Source: Sandaracinus amylolyticus (lineage in GTDB: Bacteria > Myxococcota_A > Polyangia > Polyangiales > Sandaracinaceae). Taken from it: DNA of 64,000 nt. Shown here in pieces: positions 7,701-10,700 of this stretch; position 1 is the stretch's first letter, and every line of letters begins with the position of its first letter. The stretch spans positions 9,982,001-10,046,000 of the forward strand of contig NZ_CP011125.1 in the NCBI RefSeq assembly GCF_000737325.1, written 5' to 3'. A program made the position numbers and the translations under genes. The notes beneath the pieces were generated by a model that was given only the letters and a program-made list of their open reading frames with translations, was not told the origin of the DNA and did no database searches.

Positions 7701-10700
7701 GCAGCTGCGCGGGCGTGCGCTGCGGCGTCGGCGAGGTGTGTCGCGGCGGCGAGTGCGAGAGCACGGGCTGCAACACGCCGTGCGGCGCGGGCCAGGTGTG
7801 CGCGGGCGGCGCGTGCGTCGACGATCCGTGCGGCTCGCTCGGCTGCGACACCGGCGAGGTGTGCGATCCGACGCGCGGCGAGTGCGTCGACGATCCGTGC
7901 CGCAACGTGACGTGCCCCGGCGAGGGCGAGATCTGCCGTCTCGGCGAGTGCTACGCGCCGAGCGACTTCGAGGTCGACGCGGGCACCGGCGGGATGGACG
8001 CGGGCACCGGCAGCGGTCCGCGCGAGGTGCTCGCGGCGGGCGGCGGCGGCATGTGCAGCGCGAGCGGCGCGGGCACCGGCGGCGCGAGCGGCGCGCTCGC
8101 GTGGATCGCGCTCGGCATCGTCGGGATCGTGATCGCGCGGCGTCGTCGCTCCAGTGCCAACGCTGGCACCGCCAGTGCCAACGCTGGCACCGCCAGTGCC
8201 AACGCTGGCACTGGCATCGCGCTCGTCGTCGCGCTCGTGCTCGGCGGCTGCGAGGTCGATCCCTACTGCGTCGCGAATTGCGACGGCGGCGCGGAGCTCG
8301 ACGCGGGCCCGGGCGACGACGCGGGCACCGACGGCGGCACCGACGGCGGCCGTGGTCGTCCCGACGGCTGCGTCGTCGGCGCGACCGAGGAGTGCAACGA
8401 GTCCGACGACGACTGCGACGGACTCGTCGACGAGGGCATCGACCTCACGAGCGACTCGCGGCACTGCGGCGACTGCTCGACGACGTGCGAGCGCACCGGC
8501 GCGCAGACCCAGTGCACCGAGGGCGCGTGCGAGCTGCTCGAGTGCTTCGACGGCTTCGTCGATCTCAATGGCGACATCGACGGTCCCTTCGCGGACACCG
8601 ACGGCTGCGAGTACCGCTGCTTCTCGAGCAACGGCGGCGTCGAGGCCTGCGACACGATCGACAACGACTGCGACGGCGACGTCGACGAGACGTTCGACTT
8701 CCAGGGCGACGAGGCGAACTGCGGTCGCTGCGGCCAGGTCTGCACGTTCTTCCGCGTGACCACCGCGACGTGCGACATGGGCACGTGCGAGTTCGATCCC
8801 GCGACCGACTGCGAGACCGGATACATCGATCAGAACGCCGTGCAGTTCGACGGCTGCGAGTTCGAGTGCACGCCGACCGGCGCCGAGGTCTGCGACGGCC
8901 TCGACAACGACTGCGACACCCGCACCGACGAGGGCTTCGGCCTCGAGACCGACCCGAACAACTGCGGTCGGTGCGGTCGCGTGTGCACGTTCCCGAACGC
9001 GACGCCGCGCTGCAACACCGGCGTCTGCGGGTTCGATCCGATGACCGACTGCAACGCCGGCTTCAGCGATCGCGACGGCGTGCAGCTCAACGGGTGCGAG
9101 TACCCGTGCACGCCGACCAACGGCGGCGTCGAGATCTGCGACGGGCTCGACAACGACTGCAACGGTCGCGTCGACGGTCCGACCACCGACTCCGGCGCCT
9201 CGTGCAACCGCGCGCCGGGCGGCACCGCGACCGGCGTGTGCACGAGCACCGGCACGCTCACCTGCGTCGGCGCGACGCTGCGCTGCGTGGGCGCGCCCGA
9301 GCCGACGCGCGAGATCTGCGACGGGCTCGACAACGACTGCGACGGGAGCTCGGACGACTCGCCGGTCGACGTCGGTCGCGTCTGCGCGCCCGCGGTCGGC
9401 GCCTGCACCGCCGGCTTCTCGACCTGTGGCGGTGGCACGCTCGGCTGCGTGCGCGCGGTCGGTCCGACGCCCGAGATCTGCAACGGCCTCGACGACGACT
9501 GCGACGGAACGATCGACGACATGCCGACCGATCCCACGCTCGGCGACGCGTGCGGCACCGACACCGGCGAGTGCGTGCGCGGCGCGATCGCGTGCACCGA
9601 CGGACGGCTCGTGTGCGCGGGCAGCGTCGGCGCGACGCTCGAGACCTGCAACAACCGCGACGACGACTGCGACGGCATGACCGACGACGATCCGGTCGAC
9701 GTCGGCGGCTCGTGCGGCTCGTCGGTCGGCGCGTGCGTGCCGGGCTCGCTCGTGTGCTCGAGCGGCTCGCTCGTGTGCTCGGGCGGTGCGTCGGCGAGCA
9801 GCGAGATCTGCGACAACCAGGACGACGACTGCGACGGCACCGTCGACGAGATGCTCTCGCAGAGCTGCTACACGGGCCCCGCGGGCACGAGCGGCGTCGG
9901 GCTCTGCCGCGGCGGCACGCGCGTGTGCGCGGCGGGCACGTTCGGCACGTGCGCGGGCCAGGTCGTGCCCGCGGGCGAGACCTGCACCAACACCGACGAG
10001 GACTGCGACGGCCGCATCGACGAGGGCGTGACGCGCGCTTGTTACACCGGGCCCGCGGGCACGAACGGCGTGGGCCTCTGCCGCGGCGGCACCCAGGCGT
10101 GCACCGCGGGCGCGTTCGGCGGCGCGTGCACCGGACAGGTCACGCCGGCGACCAGCGAGAGCTGCGACTCGCTCGACGACGACTGCGACGGTCGCACCGA
10201 CGAAGGCGCGGGCGGCGGTGCGCTCACGCGCAGCTGCTACACGGGCGCCGCGGGCACCGCCGGCGTCGGCACGTGCCGCGCGGGCACGCAGACCTGCCGC
10301 TTCGGTGCGTTCGAGGCCGCGTGCGCGGGCCAGATCGTGAACACGCTCGATCGCTGCGGCGACACGCTCGACACCGACTGCGACGGACTGAACGACACGG
10401 CCGAGGGATGCCTCACCGCGGGCGGCGAGCTGCGCATCGACACCGGCGGCGGCGACGATCCCGGCGAGTTCCACTCGTTCGAGGTGCAGCTCGCGTCGGG
10501 CGGCGATCCCGTGGGCCGCAACGTCTACGCGGTCTGGGTGGACAAGCGCAACGGCGGGTCGACTGCCGACGTCTTCTTCTCGCGCTCGACGAACGGCGGC
10601 TCGACGTTCTCGGCGCCCGTCGATCTGACCGACTTCGCCACCACGCGCGCGGTCGCGCCGCGGATCGCGGTGGGACGCGTGGGATCGAACGACGTCGTCT

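What the first reader, a model, noticed from the sequence alone, without database searches (positions are those of the whole stretch)
8040..8260. MYXO-CTERM-like tail read in frame into a lipoprotein signal inside one 2348-residue ORF
Residues 1082-1118 have the layout of a C-terminal surface-sorting tail (Cys-Ser, Gly/Ala linker, hydrophobic segment, Arg4), where a protein should end. Instead the frame continues through three 21-bp repeats into a hydrophobic stretch with lipobox LGGC (Cys1152) and then a second, similarly built protein. Because the repeat is 21 bp, copy-number change cannot restore a stop. Either two genes became one readable ORF through loss of a stop and repeat insertion, or a GTG at 8129 starts a separate lipoprotein. 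A protein with both an internal sorting tail and an internal lipobox would be unusual. Direct observation: the frame and motifs. Inference: processing.
Basis: partly seen in the sequence, partly recalled or inferred. Interest (0 to 1): 0.7.

Follow-up and report, generated by a model that had tools for sequence, protein, structure and literature searches.

The report
Internally sorted two-part surface polyprotein
One very long gene of a soil myxobacterium encodes two surface proteins as a single chain, with the exit tag of the first running straight into the export signal of the second; relatives keep this join through deep evolution or make the same pair from two overlapping genes, so it is probably a real way to make two matched, separately anchored proteins from one gene, though the cutting itself is unproven.

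Summary
ORF 4796-11842 (2348 aa) carries a MYXO-CTERM-like tail (8039-8149), three 21-bp repeats (8151-8211) and a lipobox Cys1152 (8249) in one open frame. It is not a recent accident: the congener and relatives from several families of the order (23 distinct continuous orthologs including this one) have the same frame. In 15 other relatives the halves are two genes, 13 with a 4-nt stop/start overlap and nearly all with a Shine-Dalgarno site. On a tree the fused state needs one gain and one reversal. The linker changed length at least 18 times, always in frame. Fused versions mostly lack an internal start with a ribosome site; the tail's Arg cluster doubles as the basic start of the second signal peptide. 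Best explanation: a polyprotein whose internal hairpin is cut by myxosortase (MrtC is encoded) and lipoprotein signal peptidase into two separately anchored surface proteins. Cutting is inferred. Five further MYXO-CTERM tails in this genome run in frame into a second signal peptide, and 20 sampled phylum hits show this layout. Known precedent: MXAN_5598. The repeats are a Sandaracinus palindromic element, not the cause of the fusion.

The parts
4796..11842 (+). Single continuous ORF, 2348 aa: the polyprotein
   Evidence: orthologous open frames of 2372 aa in G001, 2418 in G011, 2353 in G008, about 1800-1900 in others
4796..4891 (+). N-terminal Sec signal peptide of part 1 (MRPRRSRRVAPLLFIAALTASFIATDAHA/T)
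   Evidence: sequence; among the most hydrophobic segments of the frame
5270..5539 (+). DUF4114 domain of part 1 (residues 159-248)
   Evidence: Pfam PF13448, E=2e-9
8039..8149 (+). Internal MYXO-CTERM-like sorting tail: GGGGMC with Cys1087 (8054-8056), hydrophobic segment 8093-8137, Arg4 8138-8149
   Evidence: TIGR03901 aligned 1-33/34, 14.6-17.9 bits, cut-off 20; G001 ortholog 20.4 bits
8129..8131 (+).
   Evidence: inside the first membrane segment, no Shine-Dalgarno-like sequence
8151..8211 (+). Three 21-bp palindromic repeats (CCAGTGCCAACGCTGGCACCG), coding for (SANAGTA)n in the presumed cytoplasmic linker
   Evidence: five arrays in the genome
8210..8251 (+). Internal lipoprotein-type signal: TGIALVVALVLGG-Cys1152 (Cys codon 8249-8251); the upstream Arg4 would serve as basic n-region
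   Evidence: PROSITE-type lipobox pattern met; Cys at this place in all fused relatives examined
8249..11839 (+). Part 2: MopE-type Cys-rich repeats then a beta-propeller
   Evidence: Pfam PF11617 E=4.7e-34 and PF13088 BNR_2 E=1.3e-9
10421..11839 (+). C-terminal beta-propeller, fold class of sialidases and PHL/CV39L-type lectins
   Evidence: AlphaFold2 model, pLDDT 68.6, pTM 0.75; Foldseek best E=5e-9, 10-16% identity

Best explanation
The ORF is one polyprotein that carries two separately sorted surface proteins. The N-terminal signal peptide sends part 1 (DUF4114 plus a Cys-rich stalk) through Sec. The internal MYXO-CTERM segment stops transfer, with its Arg4 in the cytoplasm. That Arg cluster and a short linker are also the basic start of the next signal, which re-inserts with its lipobox on the outer face, so part 2 (Cys-rich repeats plus a lectin/sialidase-like beta-propeller) is exported too. 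Myxosortase (MrtC here) would cut at the MYXO-CTERM Cys1087 and lipoprotein signal peptidase before Cys1152, giving two lipid-anchored proteins in a 1:1 ratio and discarding the membrane hairpin. Shown: continuous frame, conserved signals, frame kept in the linker through evolution, the two-gene alternative in relatives, and a myxosortase gene. Inferred: topology, lipidation, cleavage and that the halves act together. The 21-bp repeats are a later passenger in the tolerant linker.
For: Continuous orthologs: 23 distinct ones including the window and its congener (2372 aa), all with G-rich Cys motif, membrane segment, basic cluster, linker, membrane segment and lipobox Cys. The only invariant columns across 15 orthologous and 4 unrelated fused junctions are the two Cys. 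Tree of 38 orthologs, junction excluded: the fused state needs 2 changes, one gain and one reversal when rooted on f12. At least 18 linker-length changes, all in frame, and chance of no stop about 0.009. In 15 split relatives gene 2 starts at the stop of gene 1 (13 as a 4-nt NTGA overlap), nearly all with GGAGG/GAGG; at least 20 of 23 fused versions lack an in-frame start with a Shine-Dalgarno-like sequence at the junction. MrtC 245.8 bits against cut-off 195. Of 67 MYXO-CTERM tails over cut-off in this genome, 58 stop within 10 codons and 6 run on more than 100 codons; 5 of those 6 enter a second signal peptide in frame. Twenty sampled junction hits elsewhere in the phylum are stop-free and continue in a second signal peptide.
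Against: No proteomic or biochemical data; processing is inferred from motifs. The window's own tail scores below the TIGR03901 cut-off. Four of 23 fused lipoboxes miss the PROSITE-type pattern. An uncut membrane hairpin with both halves outside would keep the same frame. Most relatives are draft or metagenome assemblies. L114 has a frameshift further down in part 2.
Confidence: 0.68

Rival explanations
1. The fused chain is not cut: it is a single membrane-hairpin protein with both halves exported and the hairpin as the only anchor.
For: One continuous frame in all fused relatives; no processing data.
Against: Both processing Cys are the only invariant junction columns; in split relatives the same two signals are an ordinary C-terminal sorting tail and an ordinary lipoprotein signal; a myxosortase gene is present.
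Confidence: 0.17
2. Part 2 is also made on its own by internal initiation, for example at GTG 8129, so that two products arise from overlapping translation.
For: An in-frame GTG exists at 8129; a few relatives have an internal GTG with a GAGG/GGAGG upstream (L114, L129).
Against: No Shine-Dalgarno-like sequence at GTG 8129, which lies inside the first membrane segment; start position not generally shared among fused relatives; two fused relatives (L010, L131) have no ATG, GTG or TTG at all in the scanned stretch. Without a stop the fused chain is made in any case.
Confidence: 0.1
3. The join is a recent gene fusion caused by stop loss and repeat insertion, or an assembly artefact.
For: The repeats sit exactly at the junction and are a dispersed element of this genus.
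Against: The frame is continuous in independent assemblies of the congener and many genera, most of them without the repeat; the tree places the fusion deep.
Confidence: 0.03

Closest known systems
MXAN_5598 of Myxococcus xanthus (internal MYXO-CTERM; Guo, Haft and Wall 2025, PMC11980579)
   Same: Adhesin-like N half, internal MYXO-CTERM, then a second envelope protein in the same ORF; the authors suggest fusion of two genes and processing of the N half.
   Different: Its second half is an outer-membrane beta-barrel with OmpA domains; here it is a lipoprotein signal, Cys-rich repeats and a propeller. The paper calls such ORFs rare and atypical; here the state is conserved over several families and recurs at other loci.
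TraA/TraB of myxobacteria (overlapping ORFs, described in PMC11980579)
   Same: A MYXO-CTERM protein gene overlapping the gene for a partner envelope protein, as in the split relatives.
   Different: TraB is an OmpA-type protein; here the partner is a lipoprotein and in this genome both are one chain.
FbcH polyprotein of Bradyrhizobium japonicum (cytochrome b/c1; from memory, not found in the library)
   Same: A bacterial polyprotein cut at an internal signal sequence into two envelope proteins.
   Different: No C-terminal sorting tail, signal peptidase I instead of II, respiratory complex.
midcut-by-XrtH proteins (NCBIfam NF033207)
   Same: By name, a protein cut in the middle by a sorting enzyme.
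   Different: Exosortase system; only one junction of 19 gave a weak match (E=0.063).

Membership tests
MYXO-CTERM proteins (TIGR03901) | Tripartite tail: Cys motif, membrane helix, Arg cluster | tested here: met
   GGGGMC, hydrophobic segment, RRRR; model positions 1-33 of 34 aligned
MYXO-CTERM proteins (TIGR03901) | Score over the curated cut-off (20 bits) | tested here: not met
   14.6 bits, 17.9 bits as isolated tail; the G001 ortholog reaches 20.4
MYXO-CTERM proteins (TIGR03901) | Tail at the C-terminus | tested here: not met
   about 1230 residues follow in frame
MYXO-CTERM proteins (TIGR03901) | N-terminal signal peptide | tested here: met
   MRPRRSRRVAPLLFIAALTASFIATDAHA by inspection; hydrophobic peak at the N-terminus
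MYXO-CTERM proteins (TIGR03901) | Myxosortase in the same genome | tested here: met
   MrtC NF040594, 245.8 bits, cut-off 195
MYXO-CTERM proteins (TIGR03901) | Cys-dependent cleavage by myxosortase | not testable with these tools
   shown for TraA in PMC11980579, not for this protein
Bacterial lipoproteins | Lipobox with Cys after a hydrophobic stretch | tested here: met
   PROSITE-type pattern met
Bacterial lipoproteins | Signal peptide at the N-terminus | tested here: not met
   internal at residue 1152; N-terminal in split relatives
Bacterial lipoproteins | Acylation and LspA cleavage | not testable with these tools
   no proteomics available
MXAN_5598-type ORFs with internal MYXO-CTERM | Internal MYXO-CTERM followed by a second envelope protein in one ORF | tested here: met
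   the HMM score of the window's own tail is below cut-off
MXAN_5598-type ORFs with internal MYXO-CTERM | Second half is a beta-barrel with OmpA domain | tested here: not met
   Pfam finds MopE repeats and BNR_2, no OmpA; five of ten second halves scanned elsewhere in the phylum do carry OmpA

The most novel reading that the evidence does not exclude
Myxococcota use a general polyprotein format in which a C-terminal sorting tail and the next protein's signal peptide are joined through a shared Arg cluster, so that one translated chain yields two separately lipid-anchored surface proteins in fixed ratio, with ATGA-coupled gene pairs as the interchangeable alternative.
Probability: 0.5. Interest if true: 0.75.

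Novelty: new variant of a known kind. Interest (0 to 1): 0.62.

Why it matters
Bacterial polyproteins resolved by sorting enzymes are hardly known. Here is an evolutionarily stable case with natural controls (fused and split relatives) and a defined pair of enzymes to test. It also means that genome annotation of myxobacteria contains single proteins that are probably two surface proteins, and that MYXO-CTERM surveys restricted to protein C-termini miss part of the surface proteome.

Tried and rejected
Repeat insertion as cause of the fusion: rejected, relatives without it are fused. Internal start: no conserved start or ribosome site. Intrinsic terminator or sigma-70 promoter at the junction: none found (weak test in a GC-rich genome). 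Assembly error: many independent assemblies agree. The repeats as an RNA or regulatory element: the array folds strongly (z -4.3), but it is absent or degraded in the congener. Literature searches for internal lipobox polyproteins or 'midcut' proteins gave nothing relevant. The window's organism is taken as Sandaracinus amylolyticus DSM 53668 from genome size only (10,327,335 bp; 10.33 Mb in PMC5010890).

Full report
The observation. The window holds one ORF of 2348 codons at 4796-11842. Three perfect 21-bp repeats follow at 8151-8211, then a hydrophobic segment with LGGC and Cys1152 (8249-8251). The three most hydrophobic 15-mers of the frame are the N-terminal signal peptide and the two segments of the junction.

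Relatives. The nearest congener with the region (G001) has a continuous ortholog of 2372 codons. The two differ in the linker: SSANAGTASANAGTASANAGTGIA against QSHRGTRSATGGAGVV. A search of 144 genomes of the order, and the loci, gave 23 distinct continuous orthologs (the window itself included; families f1, f3, f4, f5, f6, f8, f9 and two named MAGs) and 15 in which the halves are two genes (f12 and a part of f5). Every continuous one has the same order of elements: G-rich Cys motif, membrane segment, basic cluster, linker, membrane segment, lipobox Cys. In an alignment of 15 of these junctions and 4 unrelated ones from the same genome the only invariant columns are the two Cys. The Cys were anchors for extraction, but no fused ortholog lacked them.

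Two discrete states. In the 15 split relatives gene 2 begins at the stop of gene 1: 13 as a 4-nt NTGA overlap in the -1 frame, one as TAATG, one as TGATG, nearly all with GGAGG or GAGG just upstream. In fused relatives this start and ribosome site are mostly gone: at most three of 23 keep any in-frame start with a Shine-Dalgarno-like sequence near the Arg cluster or between it and the lipobox, and the window has none. No ortholog was found with a plain stop and a gap. Two more distant MAG loci (L011, L012) have the two halves as overlapping frames, that is, as separate genes.

Evolution. A maximum-likelihood tree of 38 orthologs, built from the DUF4114 region and the propeller and so without the junction, needs two changes of state: one fusion and one reversal within f5, both forced by well-supported branches when rooted on f12. 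Within the fused part (tree length 9.8 changes per column) the distance between the two Cys changed at least 18 times, always by whole codons; composition alone gives a chance of about 0.009 that no stop would have arisen in the linkers. This is what selection for a continuous chain predicts. The rows are not independent draws, so the numbers are indicative.

Not an isolated case. Of 67 tails over the MYXO-CTERM cut-off in this genome, 58 end within 10 codons, three within 50, and six run on for more than 100 codons. Five of the six enter a second signal peptide in the same frame: four lipoboxes (G000 positions 41048, 10249955, 3194762, 213837) and one signal-peptidase-I type (867999). Six further tails are followed within 60 codons by a lipoprotein-type signal in another frame, so the fused and the two-gene arrangement probably coexist in one genome. 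A profile of the junction found stop-free full-length hits in many genomes of the phylum; all 20 that were fetched continue in a second signal peptide by inspection. These 20 were selected by the profile and do not measure frequency. Of ten second halves scanned with Pfam, five carry OmpA domains, as in MXAN_5598, and others are lipoprotein-like, one with an amidase domain.

Mechanism. Established knowledge (PMC11980579): MYXO-CTERM helices sit in the inner membrane with the Arg cluster in the cytoplasm, myxosortase cuts near the Cys, and lipidation of the Cys is proposed. If the chain continues after the Arg cluster, the next hydrophobic segment is presented to Sec much as a signal peptide with a basic n-region. 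A myxosortase of the MrtC type is encoded in this genome (245.8 bits, cut-off 195). The expected products are two lipid-anchored proteins. Part 1 has a DUF4114 domain and MopE-type Cys-rich repeats; part 2 has MopE-type repeats and a beta-propeller whose model resembles sialidases and PHL/CV39L-type lectins at fold level (pLDDT 68.6). A surface carbohydrate-binding or adhesive pair is a guess from fold class. Topology, lipidation, cleavage and joint action are inferred, not shown.

The repeats. The 21-mer is a palindrome, AGTGCCA-N4-TGGCACT, present as five arrays in this genome and one in the congener, and in none of 36 other relatives searched. Two more arrays lie in frame in genes: mutY (two units here, one in G001, none in G002) and the N-terminal region of a DNA methylase ORF (three units here, two in G001). 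Because the unit is 21 bp it adds seven residues (SANAGTG-like) without breaking the frame. It is a passenger in a linker that tolerates length change.

Literature. The precedent is a short passage in PMC11980579: MXAN_5598 has an internal MYXO-CTERM, perhaps from gene fusion, and such ORFs are called rare. Nothing found in the library describes an internal MYXO-CTERM followed by a lipobox. I rate this a new variant of a known kind.

Limits.

Noticed in passing
window 8151-8211; G000 2646561, 8382769, 9640260, 10215586; G001 7971041: Genus-restricted 21-bp palindromic repeat in arrays of two or three, in frame inside mutY and a DNA methylase gene with copy-number differences between species; reminiscent of coding palindromic elements (Rickettsia palindromic elements, PARCELs in PMC2996958).
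   Followed up: partly
L049 2440-2540 (G000:C1:7942501): A sibling palindrome family, AGTGCCACTGGTGGCACT, in an array with similar spacing; the congener's junction linker looks like a decayed array of this sibling type.
   Followed up: no
L179 1519-5880; L272, L273, L274, L275: Five other ORFs of the same genome with an internal MYXO-CTERM running in frame into a second signal peptide (four lipoboxes, one signal-peptidase-I type).
   Followed up: partly
L153 (G000:C1:7047552): A MYXO-CTERM tail that runs on for 117 Arg-rich codons without a second signal peptide; perhaps a recently lost stop.
   Followed up: no
window 4703-12220, minus strand: 2505-codon open frame antisense to the polyprotein; most likely a shadow of GC-rich coding sequence.
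   Followed up: no
window 4205-4426 and 4459-4611: Tandem repeats of about 88 and 83 bp just upstream of the polyprotein gene.
   Followed up: no
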